Positions 27,391-54,891 of a stretch of DNA of 64,000 nt are shown here, in pieces. Numbering within the stretch: position 1 is the first letter of the stretch; each line of letters starts with the position of its first letter. The notes beneath the pieces are model-generated. The model made no database searches. It worked only from the letters and a program-made list of their open reading frames with translations, and was not told where the DNA came from. Position numbers and translations under genes: made by a program. Source of the stretch: Sandaracinus amylolyticus (GTDB taxonomy: Bacteria; Myxococcota_A; Polyangia; Polyangiales; Sandaracinaceae). Where the stretch lies: NCBI RefSeq assembly GCF_021631985.1, contig NZ_CP070225.1, positions 5,828,001 to 5,892,000 of the forward strand, written 5' to 3'.

Positions 27391-27477
27391 AGCTGGAGTG
27401 CTCGCTGGCGGAGGGCCCGCACGGGAGCGTGCGGCGCACGCGGACGGGAGGGCCCTCCGCCGGCGAGCCGATTTTTT
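27391..27477 (+). repeat. Hairpin repeat, family 1, copy A
   Basis: An 87-base element whose arms GCTCGCTGGCGGAGGGCCC (27400-27418) and GGGCCCTCCGCCGGCGAGC (27450-27468) pair over 19 bp with a single G-T wobble. The 31-base loop holds a smaller hairpin (GCACG-GGAG-CGTGC). The ends GGAGTGCTCG and CGAGCCGAT recur in copies at 50678 and 57927. It starts about 10 bases past the stop of the minus-strand gene at 27488; a T6 run follows on the plus strand, so it may terminate rightward transcripts. Confidence 0.85.
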
Positions 27478-47063: not shown

Positions 47064-48053
47064 TCAGGGATCGACATCGCACCGCGCGGTGGTCTCGCCG
47101 AGCGCGTGACCATCGCTCGGATCGAAGCGGAGAACACGATCAGAGTGCGCGGCGTCGAGCACGCGTTGGCCGACCGCGCCATCGACGAGCAGGCCACAGA
47201 GCCATCCCTGGCCGGACGTCGGCACGTCCCACCGCGGCGCGAACGCCTCGTCGAGCAGCACCAGGCGACGCTCCTCGGCGCGACGTACCACGAGGAGCGT
47301 GCCGCGCGGCGTGTCCACGCACTCGTGGAGCTCACCTTCGAGCCCGGTGTCGATCACGTCGCGCGTTCCTCGTCGTCGTCGCGCGATCCCGTCGGACGTC
47401 TGCCAACCGAGCATCGTCGGTGTCGAGCACCAGACGTCGGGCAGCGGATCGGGCGGGAGCGCCACGCCGGTGTCGGCGTCGAGCACGCGGCCTTGGAAGA
47501 CGAGCTCACCACCCCGCGCCGCTGGCCAGTTGGGCATGCGACCCGGCTCGCCAAACACACGCCACGTCTCGCGACCATCGGCGAGCGAGACCCTGCGGAT
47601 CGCGCCGTCGTGCGATTCGAAAAGCGCTGTCTCGGAGATCACGACGCGCGCGCGAGCGTCGAACGCGCGCAGCTGGAAACGTGGCTCGCCGTCGTCGAGT
47701 CGCAGCGCAACGTGCTCGGCGGTCCAATCGTCGTGGTGCAGCTCGACGACGATCACGCCGTCCGCCACGCGTGAGCTCACGAACCCGGCGAAGTCTCCGA
47801 TCCCCCCGAGCGACGTCGTCCACACGGGCTCACCGCTCGCCGTCGTTCGTTCGATCAAGAACTCGTCGCCGCCCGGCAGGTGCAGGCGGCGGTACAGCGT
47901 GATCGCGCCACCGTCGTCGAGATGCGCGCGATCGCGCGACCCGAGCCGCTCGTGCCGCACGAACACGACGTACCACCCGATCGTGCACAGCAAGCTCACC
48001 ACCGAGAGGCCACCGACGCACCCGAGCAACCCCGGCGACATACGGCGCTTCAT
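47064..48053 (-). CDS. Single-pass membrane protein with PQQ-like propeller
   Basis: 329 residues. One N-terminal transmembrane helix (GLLGCVGGLSVVSLLCTIGW) anchors a domain outside the cytoplasm. That domain has repeating beta segments ending in Trp-rich turns like PQQ/outer-membrane-assembly propellers: ASGEPVWTTSLGG, LADGRETWRVFGE, GELVFQGRVLDADTGVALP, APRWDVPTSGQGWLCG. No enzyme motif. It converges with the VWA lipoprotein (19-base gap) and its start abuts the long family-2 repeat at 48054. Confidence 0.72.
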   Translation of the reverse strand: MKRRMSPGLLGCVGGLSVVSLLCTIGWYVVFVRHERLGSRDRAHLDDGGAITLYRRLHLPGGDEFLIERTTASGEPVWTTSLGGIGDFAGFVSSRVADGVIVVELHHDDWTAEHVALRLDDGEPRFQLRAFDARARVVISETALFESHDGAIRRVSLADGRETWRVFGEPGRMPNWPAARGGELVFQGRVLDADTGVALPPDPLPDVWCSTPTMLGWQTSDGIARRRRGTRDVIDTGLEGELHECVDTPRGTLLVVRRAEERRLVLLDEAFAPRWDVPTSGQGWLCGLLVDGAVGQRVLDAAHSDRVLRFDPSDGHALGETTARCDVDP

Positions 48054-48413
48054 CGCGCGCGCAGCATCGCACGCATCAATTCCCGCGCGAAGCGCGCACA
48101 CGCGCGCAGCGCGGTGCGACTCGCGAGCGTCCGGGCCGCGGCGAAGCGCGGACCGGTCGCGAGCTCTCCCCAGCCTCACCCAGCACGGGGGCGAGCCGCG
48201 TCGCGGGCGCGGGGTGGAGGGGCTGGCGGGCCCACGCAGCGGGGCGGGTAGACGGCAACGCGAGATCGTCACGCGAGCGAGCAGAGCGCGCGACCGCGCG
48301 CGGCGCGAGCGAGCCTCCGCTTCCCGAAGCTCTCACCGAGCTGCGCACGGCAGCCGCGAGTACCGGCCCGCCAGACCCTCCACCCCGCGCCTCTCACCGA
48401 AGCGCTTCCGTTC
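48054..48413 (-). repeat. Family-2 structured repeat, copy E (about 340 bp)
   Basis: This 360-base gene-free gap holds an element that reads, on the minus strand, in alignment with the gap at 53832. Shared blocks are TCGGTGAGAGGCGCG, GGCCGGT, CTCGCGG and GACGCTCGCG, in the same order. Inverted arms lie at 48207-48232 and 48365-48390 (26 bases, one mismatch). It begins within 15 bases of the stop codon of the gene at 48414. No open frame in it looks like a gene. Confidence 0.75.
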
Positions 48414-49592
48414 CTAGAGGATCTGCTCGCTCATCGTGAAGTGATCCCGCACCCACGTGCGCAGCTTCGGCATGCCGAACCGATCCAAGAGCGGCAGGAA
48501 CGCGCGCTCGACACGATCCTCGCGCGTGATCGTCTCGAAGCTGCGCACCCCGACGTCGTGCGCCGCGAGCACGAAGGGCATCACCTCGGTGCGCCCTTCG
48601 TCGAACGCCTCGAACAGCATCGTCGCCTTCAGGTACGCCGCGGACACGTCGGCGAACCCCGGGCGCACGCCGCGGATGTGGCGGCTGAACGGCTCCGCGA
48701 TCACGCGGCGATCGGGCAGGTCGCGCAGGCCGTACTGCTCGAGCTGGATCTTGAAGAACGCGCTCGCGCTCACGCCCGGCAGGTCGCGCTTGCGACGCTC
48801 GGCCTCGTATCCCTCCGCGACCACCACCAGCGCGTGCTCGGCCTTCGAGAGGCCTTCCGCGATCTCGCGCAGCACCTCGTCGGGGAACGAGAAGAACGGC
48901 AGCACGATCAGGTGCGCGCGCGCCGCGACGCCGCAGTTGAGCGCGTGCCTGCCCGAGCGATTGCCCATCATCTCGAGCAGGTAGATCCGCTTGTGCGTGT
49001 AGCTGTCCTCGTAGAGGCCGCGCGCGATCTCCGCGCCCGCCTCGACGCCGGTGAGGAACCCGATCGCGCGATCCCCGCCGACGTCGTTGTCGATCGACAC
49101 GTTCACGAACGCGGTGGGCGGGCGCTCGTCGCCGAACGACTGGAGCCACGCCTTGCAGCCCTCGAACGTGCCGTTGCCTCCCACGCACACGAGGTGGGTG
49201 AAGCCCTGTGCGCGGAACGTCTGCGCGGCGAGATCGCGGGTCTCGCGCTGATGGAACCCGAGGTAGCGCTCCGAGCGGAAGTCGCTGCCCGCGTCCTGCA
49301 CCCGACGCCCCATCGAGCGCGCCGGGATGTTCTGCGCGAGCAGCTCGTAGCGCTCGCGCCGCGAGACCACCATGCGCTCGAAGCGCAGCTCGTGGGTCGC
49401 GTCGCCCGTGAGCGAGCGGAAGCCCTCGGTCGCCGCCCACACCTCGAAGCCGCGCCGCGTGCCCTCCTCGGTGAGCGCGACCGCGACCGACGAGTAGCCG
49501 GGCGCGTTGCCGCCATCGAACACGCACAGGAGACGACGCTCGCCGCGCGGGACGCGCGAGGGGCGGAGGAAGGGATTGGTCGGCTCGGTCAT
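48414..49592 (-). CDS. Divergent 6-phosphofructokinase-like protein
   Basis: 392 residues. The PFK fold is visible through its motifs: FDGGNAPGYSSV (PFK: GGDAPGMN), VCVGGNGTFEGC (PFK: GGDGSxxG), VSIDNDVGGDRAIGFLTG (PFK: TIDNDI...GF.T), EMMGNRSGRHAL (PFK: MGRxxG) and VVVAEGYE. The catalytic Asp of the IDND motif is kept, but the Asp in both glycine loops is Asn. These loops hold Mg-ATP or pyrophosphate in known enzymes, so activity may be changed or lost. Cytoplasmic. The gene stands alone; a family-2 repeat follows its stop. Confidence 0.82.
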   Translation of the reverse strand: MTEPTNPFLRPSRVPRGERRLLCVFDGGNAPGYSSVAVALTEEGTRRGFEVWAATEGFRSLTGDATHELRFERMVVSRRERYELLAQNIPARSMGRRVQDAGSDFRSERYLGFHQRETRDLAAQTFRAQGFTHLVCVGGNGTFEGCKAWLQSFGDERPPTAFVNVSIDNDVGGDRAIGFLTGVEAGAEIARGLYEDSYTHKRIYLLEMMGNRSGRHALNCGVAARAHLIVLPFFSFPDEVLREIAEGLSKAEHALVVVAEGYEAERRKRDLPGVSASAFFKIQLEQYGLRDLPDRRVIAEPFSRHIRGVRPGFADVSAAYLKATMLFEAFDEGRTEVMPFVLAAHDVGVRSFETITREDRVERAFLPLLDRFGMPKLRTWVRDHFTMSEQIL

Positions 49593-49691
49593 CGCACCGG
49601 ATCGGTAGCGTCGAACCGGGTGTCACCGCAAGCCTGAGTGTCGCCCACGGGGCGCATCGCCCCACGCGATGAGCGTGGTACATCGCGCCCC

Positions 49692-50663
49692 ATGACGAGC
49701 CGACGCACCCTGGTCCTCACGCGCCGCGAGGTGGAATCGGTCGCGACGATGCCGATGGCGGTCAGCGCCGTCGAAGAGGCGTTCGCCGCCCACGGTCGCG
49801 GCGAGGCGCGCATGCCGCCCAAGGTCTATCTGGACCTGCCCGAGCACGACGGGGACTTCCGCGCGATGCCCTCGGCGCTCGCGCACGTGGCCGGCGTGAA
49901 GTGGGTGAACAGCCATCCCAAGAACCCGGCGCGCCACGGCCTGCCCTCGGTGATGGGCGTGTACGTGCTCTCCGATCCCGAGACCGCGCTCCCGCTCGCG
50001 ATCCTCGACGCGACGTGGCTCACCGCGCTGCGCACCGGCGCGGCGGCGGCGGTCGCGTCGAAGCACCTCGCGTCGGGCGCGCCGCGCACCGTCGGGTTCG
50101 TCGGCTCGGGCGTGCAGGCGCGCACGATGCTCGCGGCGCACCGCGTGGTGTTCGGCGAGTCGTTCGAGCCGCTCTTCTCGGATCGCGATCCCGCGCTCGC
50201 CGAAGCGCTGGCGCGCGAGCTCGGCGGTCGCGCGGTGAGCGTCGAGGAGGCGAGCCGCGCCGACGTCGTGAACACCTCGACGCCGTCGCGCACGCCGGTC
50301 GTGAAGCGCGCGTGGCTGAGCGCGAGCGCGCACGTGAACGCGATGGGCGCCGACGGCCCCGGCAAGCAGGAGCTCGATCCCGACATCCTCGACGCCGCGC
50401 AGGTCGTGATCGACGAGCCCCACCAGGCCGAGCACTCGGGCGAGATCAACGTGCCGATCCACGACGGCCGCTACGCGCTCTCGAAGGTCGCGGGCACGCT
50501 CGGCGAAGTGATCGTCGGCGCGGCGACGATCGATCGCGGCGCGCTCACGGTGTTCGACTCCACGGGCCTCGCCATCCAGGACGTCGCGCTGGCGTGGCGC
50601 ATCGTCGAGGCCGCGCGCGCGAAGAGCGTCGGCGTCGAGCTCGATCTCGTCGGCGTGGGCTGA
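49692..50663 (+). CDS. Ornithine cyclodeaminase / alanine dehydrogenase / mu-crystallin family protein
   Basis: 323 residues from ATG 49692 (an in-frame start at 49638 adds a tail without homology). The family N-terminus MAVSAVEEAFAAHGRGEARM and PPKVYLDLP is followed by the Rossmann motif RTVGFVGSGVQARTMLAAH (near residue 135). Substrate-binding Lys in GVKWVNSHPKNPARHGLP and the ADVVNTSTPSRTPV strand are present. Members either cyclise ornithine to proline with NAD or reduce keto- or imino-acids with NAD(P)H; these cannot be told apart here. Divergent from the phosphofructokinase-like gene. Confidence 0.9.
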   Translation: MTSRRTLVLTRREVESVATMPMAVSAVEEAFAAHGRGEARMPPKVYLDLPEHDGDFRAMPSALAHVAGVKWVNSHPKNPARHGLPSVMGVYVLSDPETALPLAILDATWLTALRTGAAAAVASKHLASGAPRTVGFVGSGVQARTMLAAHRVVFGESFEPLFSDRDPALAEALARELGGRAVSVEEASRADVVNTSTPSRTPVVKRAWLSASAHVNAMGADGPGKQELDPDILDAAQVVIDEPHQAEHSGEINVPIHDGRYALSKVAGTLGEVIVGAATIDRGALTVFDSTGLAIQDVALAWRIVEAARAKSVGVELDLVGVG

Positions 50664-50677
50664 GCAAGCGTCCAACA

Positions 50678-50757
50678 TCGGCTCGCCCGCTCAGGGCCCT
50701 CCCGTCCACGTGCTCCGCACGCTCCCGTGCGGGCCCTGCGCGAGCGAGCACTCCAGC
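50678..50757 (-). repeat. Hairpin repeat, family 1, copy B
   Basis: Arms GCTCGCCCGCTCAGGGCCC (50681-50699) and GGGCCCTGCGCGAGCGAGC (50731-50749) pair in 17 of 19 positions. On the minus strand it aligns with copy A at 27391 over the whole length, from GGAGTGCTCG to CGAGCCGAT. It sits between two convergent genes, 15 bases after the stop at 50663 and touching the stop of the gene at 50758, where a two-way transcription stop would be useful. It has no T-run. Confidence 0.85.
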
Positions 50758-51312
50758 TCAGGGCGCGACGTCGAGCCAGCTCGTCGCGCGCGTCGCGCCG
50801 ATCGCGTCGAGCGCGCGCGCGTAGTCGACGATCCCGCTGAGCTCGTGGGTCGCCGGCGAGAGCGGTGAGCCCGCGAGCCAGTCCGCGGGCGGCCGGTAGA
50901 TCGCGCCGAGCGTGAGCCGCATCGTGATCGCGGGCCCGTCGTCGCCGCGCACCTCGACCCAGAGGACGGGGAGCACGGTCGTCGAGACCGGCTCCTGGTG
51001 CCAGCCGACGCGGTAACGCAGGGGCGCCCGCACCTCGCGTTCGCCGGCGATCCGCACGAACGCGCCCGCGCGATCGCGCCCCACCTGGACCACGCTGCGC
51101 AGCCTCCCGCGCGCGAGCCACGCGAGGAACGCGCACGCGAGCGCGAGCACGCCCGAGAGCGCGAGCACCTCGGGCAACATCGCGCGCACGTTCGCGTCGA
51201 AGACGCCGAGCACGAACGCGAGCGCGAAGAGCATCGCGAGCGCGCCGGGGACCGCGTAGGTCCACTCGCCGCGCTTCCGGATCGCACCGCGCTCGAACGT
51301 CACGTCCGCCAT
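50758..51312 (-). CDS. Hypothetical membrane protein
   Basis: 184 residues. Two transmembrane helices near the N-terminus (YAVPGALAMLFALAFVLGVF and VLALSGVLALACAFLAWLA), then a soluble domain of about 110 residues (VQVGRDRAGAFVRIAG, STTVLPVLWVEVRGDDGP, ELSGIVDYARALDAIG). No family recognised. It begins 4 bases after the stop of the upstream membrane gene, and the pair look like partners. A family-1 hairpin directly follows its stop. Confidence 0.72.
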   Translation of the reverse strand: MADVTFERGAIRKRGEWTYAVPGALAMLFALAFVLGVFDANVRAMLPEVLALSGVLALACAFLAWLARGRLRSVVQVGRDRAGAFVRIAGEREVRAPLRYRVGWHQEPVSTTVLPVLWVEVRGDDGPAITMRLTLGAIYRPPADWLAGSPLSPATHELSGIVDYARALDAIGATRATSWLDVAP

Positions 51313-51316
51313 TCGT

Positions 51317-51958
51317 TCACCAGAGGAAGTCGGGGCCGAGCTGGAGCACGGGCGCGCGCCCCGGGAACGCGCAGCCGCTCGCGCCGCGCGCGACCTCGTC
51401 GCCGTGCTCGTCGCGGATCGTGAGCTCGAGCTCGGCTCCGTCGCACATCTCCCAGGGCGCGGCGTGATCGCCGCCGGGCTCGGTGCCGCACGCGCCGCGC
51501 GTGACCGTGGACAGCGCGAGCGTGCGCGACGTGCCGGGCGCGAGCGTGATCGCGCCTTCGTGCTCGACGCGCAGGCGCGGACCGGGGTCGCGGTGCGGGT
51601 GATCGCCGCGCGCGTCGATCTCGAGGACGCGCGGCGCGTCGCCGAGGTTGCGCAGCTCGATGCGCCCGGGCTCGCACGCGATCGCGATGCGGCGCAGCTC
51701 GCGCTCGGCGCGCGCCGCGTGGTGCTCGGCGCGCGCACGGAGCGCCCCGTTCGCGAGCAGCGCGAGCCCGAGCACGAACGTCACCGGCCCGTTGAGCCAC
51801 AGCCACACGCCGCGCGCGTCGAAGACCGGCAGGTACTGCCCGGCCGCGCGCGCCCCCTCGCGCGCCAGGAGGTGACGCCGGCGGTAGGGCCACACGAACG
51901 CGCCGATCGCGACCGCGATCAGGCCGAAGCCGAGCGTCAGGACGGTCTCGTCGCGCAC
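51317..51958 (-). CDS. Hypothetical membrane protein
   Basis: 213 residues. Two predicted transmembrane helices (VLTLGFGLIAVAIGAFVWPY; VWLWLNGPVTFVLGLALLAN) flank a short loop. The C-terminal 140 residues are probably periplasmic and beta-rich (IELRNLGDAPRVLEIDARG, GTSRTLALSTVTRGACG) and contain four cysteines. First gene of a two-gene unit with the membrane protein at 50758. Upstream (to 52475) lies a long repeat-bearing gap. Function unknown. Confidence 0.7.
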   Translation of the reverse strand: MRDETVLTLGFGLIAVAIGAFVWPYRRRHLLAREGARAAGQYLPVFDARGVWLWLNGPVTFVLGLALLANGALRARAEHHAARAERELRRIAIACEPGRIELRNLGDAPRVLEIDARGDHPHRDPGPRLRVEHEGAITLAPGTSRTLALSTVTRGACGTEPGGDHAAPWEMCDGAELELTIRDEHGDEVARGASGCAFPGRAPVLQLGPDFLW

Positions 51959-51998
51959 GCGCAGAGGATACGATCACGCGGCGACGGCTCTCCCGACA

Positions 51999-52146
51999 CG
52001 ATCCCCTCCGTCGGCGGCTCGATCCCCTCCGTCGGCGGCTCCATCCCCTCCGTCAGCAGCCCGATCCCCTCCGTCGGCGAGCCGATCCCCTTCGTCGGCA
52101 GCCCGATCCCCTCTGACGGCAGCCCGATCCCCTCCGTCGACGAGCA
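51999..52146. repeat. Seven-copy 21-bp tandem repeat
   Basis: Seven head-to-tail units of about GATCCCCTCCGTCGGCGGCTC, starting at 52000, 52021, 52042, 52063, 52084, 52105 and 52126. Copies 1 and 2 are identical and the rest differ by 2-5 bases. The 21-base period keeps frame (IPSVGGS-like on plus, TEGIEPP-like on minus), but no start, ribosome site or flanking coding signal supports a protein. It lies in the gap between divergent genes. Confidence 0.85.
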
Positions 52147-52475
52147 GGGTCCCCGGCGTCGACGACGGGGGTCCCCTCTCCGCGTGCGCCGCGCCCCGTC
52201 ACACGCGACGCGATCCCCAGCGGACCGGCGCGCTCGCCCCGAGGGAGCGCGCTCGGCCTCGCGCGGGACCGCGTGACCCGACGACGGGATCACGACCGGC
52301 GTCGCGAGGGACTGCGCGGCGCGACGACAGGAGCGCGATGCACCACGCGAGGGACGTCGTCGGCCGAGCGAGGAGCGCGATCCGCCACGCGAGGGACCTC
52401 GTCGTCGTCCGAGGGCGCTCGCCGCGAGATGACGGGAGCGGCCACGTGCGGCGCGGGGCAGTACCATCGCGCGCG
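52147..52475. other. Gene-free region upstream of the monoamine oxidase, with direct repeats and hairpins
   Basis: No gene supported. Two direct copies of AGGAGCGCGAT...CCACGCGAGGGAC start at 52329 and 52371 (42-base period). Inverted pairs include CGTGACCCG/CGGGATCACG (about 52271-52293) and GCGCGCTC/GAGCGCGC (about 52229-52252). The promoter of the oxidase gene must lie here, but no clear consensus is visible. Confidence 0.5.
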
Positions 52476-53831
52476 ATGCAGCCATTCGAGTCGGACGTGA
52501 TCGTCGTCGGCGCGGGGTTCGCCGGGCTCTCCGCGGCGCGGCGGCTGTGCGCCGCCGGGCGTCGCGTCGCGCTGATCGAAGCGCGCGATCGCGTCGGCGG
52601 GCGCGTCTACACCGAGACCCATCACGGCACCGCGATCGATCTCGGCGGGCAGTGGCTCGGGCCCACGCAGGACCGCGCGCTCGCGCTCGCGAAGGAGCTC
52701 GGCCTCGCGACCTATCGGCAGCACGTCGAGGGACACAACGTGCTGCACTTCGCGGGCAAGCGGCGGCTCTTCCGCGGCACCGTCCCGCGCGTCGACGCGG
52801 CGTCGCTCGCGGCAGTCGGCTGGGTGTGGTTCCGCCTCGATCAGCTCGCGAAGGAGGTGCCGCTCGATGCGCCCTGGGAGGCGAAGCAGGCGAGCGAGTG
52901 GGACGCGACGACGCTCGACACGTTCCTGCGCACCCACGCGCCGACCGAGGGCGCACGCAAGCTGCTGCGTTATGCGATGGAGACGGTGTTCGCGGCGGAT
53001 CCCGCGGACCTCTCGCTGCTGCACGCGCTCTTCTACATTCGCTCGGGCGGTGGGCTCGATCGACTGCTCTCGAGCGAGAACGGCGCGCAGCAGGATCGCG
53101 TGGTGGGCGGGATGCAGCGGCTCGCCGAGGCGCTCGCGGCGAAGCTGCCCGAGGGCGCCCTGCGCCTCTCGACGCCGGCGCGCGTGATCGAGCACGACCG
53201 CGACGGCGTGGTGGTGCGGAGCGACGACGCGGCGTTCGCGGGCTCGCGCGTGATCGTGGCGCTGCCGCCGATGCTCGCGGGGCGACTGCGTTATGCGCCC
53301 GCGATGCCGAGCTCGCGCGATCAGCTCACGCAGCGCGTGCCGCAGGGCGCGGTGATCAAGTGCATCGCGATCTACGAGCGCGCGTGGTGGCGCGACGAGG
53401 GATTGTCGGGCCACGCGATCACCGACGTCGGTCCGGCGCACGTGCAGTTCGACGCGTCGACGCCCGAGGGCACCCCGGGTGTGCTGCTCGGCTTCATCGA
53501 GGGCGCGGCGGCGCGCGAGTGGAGCGATCGATCGCACGCCGAGCGACGGGACGCGGTGCTCGCGTGCTTCTCGCGCTGCTTCGGCGTGCGCGCGGGGCTG
53601 CCGGTGCACTACGTCGACAAGAGCTGGACCGAGGACGAGTGGAGCCGCGGCTGCTACGCGGGGTACTTCCCGCCCGGCGTGTGGACGAGCTCGGGCAAGG
53701 CGCTGCGCGCGCCGGTGGGGCGGGTGCACTGGGCGGGGACCGAGACGGCGACTGTCTGGAATGGGTATATCGAGGGGGCTCTTCGGTCCGGGGAGCGGGC
53801 CGCGGAAGAAGTCCTGCGAAGCTCTCGGTGA
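52476..53831 (+). CDS. Flavin monoamine oxidase family protein
   Basis: 451 residues. FAD motif DVIVVGAGFAGLSAARRLC (near residue 6) and RDRVGGRVYTE, the GGR signature of the MAO family, then LGGQWLGPTQDRAL. Substrate-domain segments include GGMQRLAEALAAKLPEGAL and VIVALPPMLAGRL. The C-terminal FAD contact is GRVHWAGTETATVWNGYIEG, as in MAO A/B and putrescine oxidases. It oxidises a primary or secondary amine to an aldehyde with H2O2. No covalent-flavin Cys pattern was confirmed. The TGA stop lies inside the conserved edge of the family-2 repeat that follows. Confidence 0.93.
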   Translation: MQPFESDVIVVGAGFAGLSAARRLCAAGRRVALIEARDRVGGRVYTETHHGTAIDLGGQWLGPTQDRALALAKELGLATYRQHVEGHNVLHFAGKRRLFRGTVPRVDAASLAAVGWVWFRLDQLAKEVPLDAPWEAKQASEWDATTLDTFLRTHAPTEGARKLLRYAMETVFAADPADLSLLHALFYIRSGGGLDRLLSSENGAQQDRVVGGMQRLAEALAAKLPEGALRLSTPARVIEHDRDGVVVRSDDAAFAGSRVIVALPPMLAGRLRYAPAMPSSRDQLTQRVPQGAVIKCIAIYERAWWRDEGLSGHAITDVGPAHVQFDASTPEGTPGVLLGFIEGAAAREWSDRSHAERRDAVLACFSRCFGVRAGLPVHYVDKSWTEDEWSRGCYAGYFPPGVWTSSGKALRAPVGRVHWAGTETATVWNGYIEGALRSGERAAEEVLRSSR

Positions 53832-54204
53832 GAGGCGCGAGGGGGTGGGTCCGGCGGCCGGTGTGCTCGCGGGCTGCTCTTCGATCGCTGTGAGAGAGTT
53901 GGGCAGCGGTGGGCGCATCGCGGCGCGCGCGTTGCGCTCTGCCGCGATGCTGTCGTCAGTCTGTGGTCGGCCTCGGCGAGCCCCCGTCGCACGAGGCCGC
54001 CGGACCCACCCCCTCGCGCCCGAGACCGCGGTTCTGCCGCCTCGCTTGGTTGGGTGGACGATGGCTCGCGACGGAGTCGCGCTGTTCGCGCGCCTCCGAC
54101 GCTCGCGCGTAGCAGCGCGCGCTCCGCGCGCGACTGGAGCCGATCGGGGCCGAGGAGGACGCGGCCTTCTGCATGCGTTCGTGCGCGTGCAGGGCCGTTC
54201 GCGA
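53829..54204 (+). repeat. Family-2 structured repeat, copy D (about 330 bp)
   Basis: A gene-free gap holding inverted arms of 26 bases that match perfectly: 53834-53859 (GGCGCGAGGGGGTGGGTCCG...) and 53995-54020. An inner pair GCATCGCGGC (53915-53924)/GCCGCGATGC (53941-53950) lies near the centre. It aligns with the minus strand of the gap at 48054 through TCGGTGAGAGGCGCG, GGCCGGT, GCTCGCGAC and GACGCTCGCG. The alignment fades after about 54150; the last 50 bases hold nothing recognised. Confidence 0.75.
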
Positions 54205-54891
54205 TCAGAACTCGATCGTCAGCCTGATCGCGGTCGGGCCCAGCGCGAGGCCGACCTGGCGCTCCAGCGTGCGGCGGCGCTCTTCGAGATCGTCGCGGTG
54301 CGTGTCGCTCTGGCGCTCGAGGTACGACGCGCGGCGATCCGCGAAGCTGGCGCCCGAGAGCAGCACTGCGCTCACCAGCGCGGTCGCGAGGCCGCCGATG
54401 ATCCACTCCGGCGCGTCGTAACAGCCGAGGTCCGCCTCCGCGACACACGCGCTCTGCAGCGCGGCGATCACCAGCGTCGACGCCGACGCGACCGCGAGGC
54501 CCACGCCGCCGACGTAGAGCGCGACCGCGAGGAGGCGCTCCTGGCCCGCCGCGTCCATCTCGCGCTGCAGCGCGAGCTCGTCGATCTGCAGGCCCGCGAG
54601 ACGGCGCGCGGCGCTGCGCTGCTCCGCGCTCGGTGCGACCGGCGAGTCGAGCTGCTCGGCGCTCGGTGCGACCGGCGAGCCGAGCTCCTGCGGGGGCGCC
54701 GCGTCGACCGAGGGCGCCGCGTCGACTGGCATCGCGTCGGTTGGCGGCGTGTCGAGTGGCAGCGCCGTGTCGGCTGGCAGCGCCGTGTCGACGGGAGGCG
54801 CCAGCGCCTCGGCGGCGTCCTGCGCGTGCGCGACGTCGCACCACGCGAGCCCGACTACGAAAACCCATCCCGCGAGCGCGAGTCTCGTCAC
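54205..54891 (-). CDS. Secreted/membrane hypothetical protein with Pro-Ala-Asp linker
   Basis: 228 residues from GTG 54891. Signal peptide (TRLALAGWVFVVGLAWCDVA, cut after AHAQ), then a 60-residue linker of Pro, Ala, Asp and Thr units (DTALPADTALPLDTPP) that includes a duplicated SPVAPSAEQ. A helix, two transmembrane segments (LYVGGVGLAVASASTLVIAA; WIIGGLATALVSAVLLSG) and a charged coiled coil (QSDTHRDDLEERRRTLERQ) follow. No family recognised. Downstream of the amidohydrolase on the same strand with a 107-base gap. Confidence 0.7.
   Translation of the reverse strand: MTRLALAGWVFVVGLAWCDVAHAQDAAEALAPPVDTALPADTALPLDTPPTDAMPVDAAPSVDAAPPQELGSPVAPSAEQLDSPVAPSAEQRSAARRLAGLQIDELALQREMDAAGQERLLAVALYVGGVGLAVASASTLVIAALQSACVAEADLGCYDAPEWIIGGLATALVSAVLLSGASFADRRASYLERQSDTHRDDLEERRRTLERQVGLALGPTAIRLTIEF

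What the first reader, a model, noticed from the sequence alone, without database searches (positions are those of the whole stretch)
48054..48413. Second copy (E) of the same element; arms differ in sequence but keep pairing
Read on the minus strand, this gap aligns with copy D over about 330 bases. Shared blocks are TCGGTGAGAGGCGCG, GGCCGGT, CTCGCGG and GACGCTCGCG. Its arms (48207-48232, 48365-48390) pair in 25 of 26 positions, yet their sequence differs from the arms of D. Preserved pairing despite changed sequence is the signature of selection on a stem, or of arm-to-arm conversion. Like D it starts within 15 bases of a stop codon, here that of the phosphofructokinase-like gene.
Basis: seen in the sequence. 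Interest (0 to 1): 0.76.

Follow-up and report, generated by a model that had tools for sequence, protein, structure and literature searches.

The report
Dispersed stem-loop repeat after stop codons
This gap holds one copy of a roughly 320-base non-coding DNA repeat, found dozens of times in two related soil bacteria, usually just behind a gene, whose two matching arms change together in a way that looks like one arm being copied from the other rather than like a conserved RNA.

Summary
E (about 48081-48403, minus strand) and D (about 53825-54130) belong to a dispersed non-coding repeat of about 320 nt. I count 46 places here (probably Sandaracinus defensii MSr10575) and 44 in a congener (probably S. 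amylolyticus), partial copies included; no third genome matched among 282 sampled from the phylum. At 45 of 58 independent sites a sense-gene stop codon lies between 25 nt before and 9 nt after the start of the unit.

The 26-bp arms covary strongly: 97.2% of cells pair, against 81.8% after shuffling. The pattern is wrong for an RNA stem. Coupled changes run Watson-Crick to Watson-Crick, 74 of 105 by double transversion. G.T wobble is nearly absent: 3 of 1655 standard pairs, against 50 of 584 in a tRNA control. No covarying helix was found in the interior.

Best reading: a REP-like but not REP DNA element whose arms are kept equal at DNA level, by arm-to-arm template copying and exchange of whole stem-loops between copies. 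Some copies decay by deletion of loop plus one arm. An IS110-family element inserts at one fixed position in it (4 of 6 copies here). A role at gene ends is inferred. Rfam has no match.

The parts
48081..48403 (-). copy E of the repeat
   Evidence: consensus positions 1-324 match, 77.9% identity
48365..48391 (-). 5' arm of E
   Evidence: 26 of 27 pairs with 48206-48232
48206..48232 (-). 3' arm of E
48233..48364 (-). 132-nt interior of E; conserved sequence, no covarying helix found in the family
48122..48164 (-). 3' hairpin module of E (exact match to the family consensus 43-mer)
   Evidence: G000:C1:5876122-5876164, 0 mismatches; the hairpin shows coupled changes in the family
48414..49592 (-). 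upstream gene, phosphofructokinase domain; 10 nt between its stop codon and E
   Evidence: PF00365 E 1.8e-35; sequence
47064..48053 (-). downstream gene, start codon 27 nt behind E; weak PQQ_2 match below the curated cut-off
   Evidence: sequence
53825..54130 (+). copy D of the repeat
   Evidence: consensus positions 4-304, 84.7% identity
53834..53859 (+). 5' arm of D
   Evidence: 26 of 26 pairs
53995..54020 (+). 3' arm of D
54064..54107 (+). 3' hairpin module of D, diverged from consensus
   Evidence: read from sequence and alignment
52338..53831 (+). upstream gene of D, flavin amine oxidoreductase; its TGA lies inside the first bases of D
   Evidence: PF01593 E 3.1e-76

Best explanation
E is one copy of a non-coding, dispersed DNA repeat of about 320 bp that I found only in two species of one genus. 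Order: a short lead (GCTTCGGYGNGAGG), a 26-bp arm, a conserved interior of about 133 nt, the second arm, a conserved linker (..TCTGCCGYCTCGC..) and a second, shorter hairpin. It spread at least partly before the two species split, is now mostly inherited in place, and usually sits directly behind a gene. The arms are a DNA inverted repeat. A base change in one arm is in time copied into the other, most likely by template switching between the arms during replication; now and then a whole stem-loop is exchanged between copies. That is why arms differ between copies and still match within a copy. Some copies are lost by deletion of the loop and one arm. Shown: the family, its position, coupled Watson-Crick-only change, deletion remnants, IS110 insertion. 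Inferred: template switching as the cause, exchange of whole stem-loops, and a REP-like role at gene ends (a structured 3' flank that insulates or protects the transcript end).
For: 46 + 44 places. Covariation on 57 of the 67 near-full copies: 97.2% of cells paired versus 81.8% shuffled, 181 cells changed on both sides versus 41.4, score 0.357 versus 0.079, slid structures at most 0.074, and only 2 cells changed on one side, both to wobble. On a tree from non-arm columns, without two irregular pairs: 74 double transversions, 31 double transitions, 4 other double changes, 3 WC-wobble, 21 WC-mismatch. In 67 copies A.C mismatches (23) exceed G.T (3), p 9e-5, though rows are related; without the two irregular pairs 9 versus 3, p 0.15, not significant. 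tRNA control: 50 wobble of 584 standard pairs. One orthologous site carries different stem-loop subtypes in the two species (L019/L118), fitting exchange of whole units. In 14 orthologous pairs the interior differs by 0.10 and the arms by 0.045, while the stretch 20-120 nt behind the unit is only 0.45-0.79 identical. Deletion remnants: L145, L024, L184.
Against: The arms are 133 nt apart; the template-switching papers I read deal mainly with short spacers. No copy with an inverted interior appeared in the BLAST lists (not searched for specially), though template switching can produce one. In 14 ortholog pairs one-sided arm changes (19) outnumber coupled ones (7), so correction is slow. The 3' hairpin shows more single mismatch changes (27) than coupled Watson-Crick ones (18). 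No transposase of its own, no target duplication and no clean empty site were found, so how the copies spread is unexplained. No expression data. Conservation of orthologs is biased upward because degenerate copies were left out.
Confidence: 0.6

Rival explanations
1. A structured RNA (3' UTR regulator, terminator or small RNA) whose 26-bp stem is under selection.
For: Strong covariation of the stem and coupled changes in the 3' hairpin; upstream gene in sense in 48 of 67, antisense in 13, unclear in 6; orthologs conserved better than the DNA behind them.
Against: Wobble pairs 3 of 1655 standard pairs against 50 of 584 in tRNAs; double transversions dominate; no covarying helix inside the interior; no Rfam match at gathering score in the window, and at E up to 1 in six loci only three hits, all outside the unit; no sigma-70 or intrinsic-terminator-like site by simple scan of 47900-54400 (a weak test in a 73% GC genome).
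Confidence: 0.2
2. A DNA hairpin or cruciform that is itself recognised (recombination site or single-strand transposition substrate, like attC or IS200/IS605 ends), so that selection acts on exact Watson-Crick DNA pairing.
For: Watson-Crick-only coupled change; position behind stop codons resembles cassette sites (recalled); dispersal to unrelated flanks requires some copying machinery.
Against: No Y1 (RAYT/IS200-type) transposase found in the own genome: PF01797 0 of 1, the control ringing in 5 of 14 genomes. The consensus holds no AAC, and its single GTT lies inside the unit, at position 207 of 314. Integron integrase not searched. No clean insertion site among the G001 comparisons.
Confidence: 0.2
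3. A non-autonomous transposon (MITE) whose arms are terminal inverted repeats of a lost IS.
For: Dozens of dispersed copies, most with unrelated flanks.
Against: The arms are internal: about 12 nt of conserved sequence before them and about 90 nt or more after them. Sites that lack the unit in G001 show remnants or wholesale change, not a clean site with a duplication.
Confidence: 0.1

Closest known systems
REP / BIME elements of enterobacteria and pseudomonads
   Same: Dispersed palindromic non-coding units, extragenic; targets of IS110-family insertions (PMC1525189, abstract and first part of the Discussion read).
   Different: Here about 320 nt with 26-bp arms 133 nt apart and a conserved interior, 46 places found, and no Y1/RAYT transposase found in the genome.
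Stem-loop (SLS) repeat families of bacteria; BOX, RUP and SPRITE of pneumococcus
   Same: Families of structured, mostly intergenic repeats; for BOX, RUP and SPRITE also narrow host range and slow present-day insertion (PMC2267715 and PMC3049150, abstracts read).
   Different: Sequence similarity not tested; here one long-armed architecture, usually just behind a stop codon.
Template-switch homogenisation of inverted repeats (quasi-palindrome correction)
   Same: Arms made equal by copying; multi-base coupled changes (PMC8604942: passages; PMC8794818: passages and one section; PMC8604942 cites bacterial data in which transversions were favoured).
   Different: The cases seen there are mainly short-spaced arms; here about 133 nt apart, in 67 dispersed near-full copies.
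IS110-family insertion sequences with bridge/seek RNA
   Same: The inserted IS encodes a PF02371 transposase and enters one fixed core in the unit.
   Different: The unit is the target, not the IS; the guide RNA was not examined (PMC11208160 and PMC11187229 seen only as abstract starts in a listing).

Membership tests
REP/BIME | short (20-40 nt) imperfect palindrome units (size recalled) | tested here: not met
   unit is about 320 nt with arms about 133 nt apart
REP/BIME | usually more than 100 copies per genome (PMC2817692, abstract start seen in a listing) | tested here: inconclusive
   46 places found, but each search scored only 40 candidates
REP/BIME | associated RAYT (Y1) transposase | tested here: not met
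   PF01797: 0 of 1 genome; not every REP-bearing genome need keep one (recalled)
REP/BIME | extragenic, often 3' of genes | tested here: met
   45 of 58 independent sites have a sense stop codon within -25..+9 of the unit's start
MITE | terminal inverted repeats at both ends | tested here: not met
   conserved sequence extends beyond both arms
MITE | target-site duplication / clean empty site | tested here: inconclusive
   no clean empty site at the D and E sites or in nine further G000-G001 comparisons (part of the output was cut)
attC (integron) | terminal GTTRRRY / RYYYAAC boxes (recalled) | tested here: not met
   314-nt consensus: no AAC, one GTT, and that internal at position 207
attC (integron) | integron integrase in the genome | not tested
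   no search spent on it
Rfam RNA families | score above a family's gathering cut-off | tested here: not met
   0 matches in the window
Structured RNA in general | covarying helices with wobble intermediates | tested here: not met
   covariation met, wobble not: 2 one-sided cells against 181 two-sided
Retron msr-msd | adjacent reverse transcriptase | not tested
   Pfam scans of the four genes flanking D and E name none (one of the four has no Pfam match); flanks of other copies not scanned

The most novel reading that the evidence does not exclude
The arms are rewritten together when the element is copied to a new site, as if the second arm were synthesised on the first (snap-back or hairpin intermediate), and then stay nearly fixed. 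This would be an unknown self-templating dispersal mechanism. Support: D-type arms diverge 4.6-fold more between sites than between orthologs (0.197 versus 0.043), the interior only 2.0-fold (0.184 versus 0.093), with 4.17 coupled and 1.94 one-sided arm changes per paralogous pair against 0.56 and 1.11 per orthologous pair; E-type 4.8-fold and 2.8-fold. Against it: the variable D-type tail also rises 5.0-fold (0.404 versus 0.080), and saturation of a constrained interior in older copies explains the same numbers.
Probability: 0.15. Interest if true: 0.75.

Novelty: new member of a known kind. Interest (0 to 1): 0.5.

Why it matters
Coupled change in a stem is normally read as proof of a conserved RNA. 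Here the coupled change is extreme while the usual RNA mark, G.U wobble, is missing, in 67 near-full copies from two complete genomes. It offers a natural test of whether DNA template switching can mimic RNA covariation over a 133-nt spacer, and a warning for covariation-based RNA discovery. It also gives an IS110 element a defined repeated target in a myxobacterium.

Tried and rejected
Other copies in the window: two extra alignment scores (reverse-strand offsets 15600 and 9840) were E itself and D's own arms.

The 3' hairpin as an independent repeat: not supported. A 43-mer pattern with up to 3 mismatches hits 20 places, of which 19 lie in places already listed (two of them, 8698069 and 9827710, partial copies); only 4551445 was new.

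The first alignment was invalid because minus-strand loci were not turned; redone.

The duplicate filter dropped one IS-split copy (L113) as a false duplicate; a merge by coordinates of the lists gives the same totals, 46 and 44, with fragments up to 30 nt apart joined (this joins two tandem G001 copies into one; unjoined 49 and 46). The 67 near-full copies are not affected.

I scanned 60 of its 80 listed loci for tRNAs (5 genes); these and 23 of phage T5 made the wobble control. T5 is not GC-rich like this genome and ARAGORN leaves mismatches out of its brackets, so the control is rough.

Comparing arms only in copies with interior identity of 0.85 or more (arms 0.172, interior 0.120 divergence) conditions on the interior and is not used as proof; one search repeats it without that condition.

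Plasmid records: no match. Stop-codon control: 36 of 248 flank positions have a clear sense stop in a wider window, -80..+60. The phylum search scored only two candidates per genome and listed E up to 1e-6. In one search the third genome of the genus gave two short hits (41 and 26 nt, E 2.8e-4 and 9.7e-4), taken as chance.

Rows dropped: 23 of 90 places were too partial for the main alignment. For one search I gave 57 of 67: four were lost by the script, and six I left out (missing right arm, odd length, or shortened interior hairpin). Pair L019/L118 was left out of the 14-pair counts; with it coupled 13, one-sided 20.

Full report
What is there. Copy E lies in the gap between a phosphofructokinase-domain gene (stop codon 48414-48416, minus strand) and the next co-directional gene (start codon 48053-48051). 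It aligns with D over about 330 columns, score 153 against at most 53 in 500 shuffles. Its arms 48206-48232 and 48365-48391 pair in 26 of 27 positions, D's in 26 of 26. They are the only near-perfect ones among the 25 longest of 150 inverted repeats in the window.

The family. BLAST of the own genome with E and with D each returned 40 places, the number of candidates scored, so the count is a lower bound. With the same searches of a congener, G001, there are 46 places in G000 and 44 in G001, partial ones included. Of these 67 are near-full (36 and 31). Two subtypes of the interior exist, 41 D-type and 26 E-type. Among 56 relatives and 282 genomes drawn from the phylum (two candidates scored per genome), both sets including G000 and G001, only these two carry it; a third, draft genome of the genus gave no match. 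Ten other genomes gave short weak hits (best E 1.5e-5, 50 nt), which I read as chance. Contig sizes, 10,754,065 and 10,327,335, agree with S. defensii MSr10575 (10.754 Mb, PMC9306752, passages read) and S. amylolyticus DSM 53668 (10.33 Mb, PMC5010890, abstract start and passages read); the identification is by size only.

Anatomy. Lead GCTTCGGYGNGAGG, 26-bp arm, interior of about 133 nt, second arm, linker with TCTGCCGYCTCGC, then a hairpin of about 10 pairs around TTCG between two GCTCGCG copies, then variable tails of two kinds. The hairpin belongs to the unit: 19 of 20 pattern matches fall in listed places.

Position. In 54 of 73 rows, or 45 of 58 after dropping the G001 member of each orthologous pair, a coding frame on the same strand ends from 25 nt before to 9 nt after the start of the lead. 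By codon-position GC the upstream gene is sense in 48 of 67, antisense in 13 and unclear in 6. So the rule is strong but not absolute.

Covariation. On 57 sequences the named arm helix has 97.2% of cells paired (shuffled 81.8), 18 of 26 pairs with two-sided change, 181 cells changed on both sides (shuffled 41.4), score 0.357 (shuffled 0.079; slid versions at most 0.074), no shuffle of 500 reaching any observed value. The tool warns that relatedness inflates such shuffles; the slid control keeps relatedness, though it favours a structure taken from one of the sequences, as here from D. A left arm pairs Watson-Crick with its own right arm in 96.4% of cells but with another copy's in 78.4%.

Why not simply an RNA stem. 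Of 1655 standard pairs 3 are G.T; in 28 tRNAs 50 of 584 are. On a tree built without the arms, leaving out two irregular pairs, coupled Watson-Crick changes number 105, of which 74 are transversion-type with no wobble route; 4 are other double changes, 3 steps lead to or from wobble and 21 to or from a mismatch. With all pairs the numbers are 84 transversion, 36 transition, 15 other double, 3 wobble, 42 mismatch. The 3' hairpin also shows coupled changes, but there single mismatches dominate (27, against 18 coupled Watson-Crick, 11 other double, 2 wobble). In the interior I found no covarying helix: predicted helices are nearly constant or full of wobble. A.C exceeds G.T, 23 to 3, but 14 of the 23 lie in the two irregular pairs; without them 9 to 3, p 0.15.

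Turnover. By flank matches 19 of 46 own places have a G001 copy with both flanks alike, two of them through the inserted IS. Among 15 near-full orthologous pairs the ortholog is the nearest relative in 12; one of the other three (L019/L118) carries a different stem-loop subtype at the same place, which fits replacement of the whole stem-loop. At the D and E sites G001 lacks the unit: the upstream gene matches to about its stop codon, then the DNA differs, apart from a weak 41-nt match behind the E site (83% identity) that could be a remnant; at D a segment of 1.2 kb with a 396-codon open frame stands there instead. Four other site pairs and five tagged sites out of ten tagged show left-arm remnants with the loop and right arm gone (L145, L024, L184), a left arm followed by other DNA (L163), weak traces (L186), a site with only the 3' module (L156), or nothing recognisable (G001 sites of L010 and L043); L055 was unclear, and L160 is the left half of a copy that the IS seems to have split. 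No clean insertion site was found. Loss by deletion is supported; recent gain is not shown.

Constraint. Fourteen orthologous pairs differ by 0.102 in the interior and 0.045 in the arms, while the stretch 20-120 nt behind them is only 0.45-0.79 identical and the upstream 300 nt 0.78-0.98. This suggests constraint, with the caveat that degenerate copies were excluded.

IS110 link. A PF02371 transposase gene occurs in six copies in the genome, five identical; four sit in this unit at the same point, between GTGCT and CTCGC, and two elsewhere. In G001 five places show the end of a relative of the IS at the same point (96% identical flanks). REPs are known targets of IS110-family elements (PMC1525189).

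Mechanism. Best reading: a DNA-level element, REP-like in place and in being an IS110 target, with arms equalised by copying from each other and by exchange of whole stem-loops. Template switching is documented to do this to inverted repeats (PMC8604942, PMC8794818, passages), mainly with short spacers. A role at transcript ends is inferred from position only, and how the copies spread is not explained.

Literature. Searches for Sandaracinus (125 papers, 15 listed), myxobacteria with repeat terms (10 of 197 listed), Sandaracinus among repeat and small-RNA terms (3 of 5,854 listed) and Sandaracinus with inverted repeat (one paper, on photoregulation) showed no description of this family; I read only listings there, and only open-licence papers are held.

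Noticed in passing
window 27400-27468; L338 near position 1419: A second palindromic repeat (GGAGGGCCCGCAC...): one copy in the window and one beside another copy of the same IS110-family element, which may therefore target this repeat too.
   Followed up: partly
L058:114-1451 (-) and the places of L337-L342 in G000: IS110-family element (445-aa transposase), six copies: five identical and one at 98%; four lie in the repeat at one fixed core. Its guide RNA was not sought.
   Followed up: partly
L177:1275-2465 (-), G001 between the D-flanking genes: Where D stands in this genome, the congener has about 1.2 kb of other DNA with a 396-codon open frame between the same two genes.
   Followed up: partly
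repeat tails, alignment columns 311-345: Two kinds of tail (GTAGCACCGCGC... and TTCGGGCTCTGC...) and two kinds of interior exist; copies with similar ends can carry different interiors, as if modules were reassorted between copies.
   Followed up: partly
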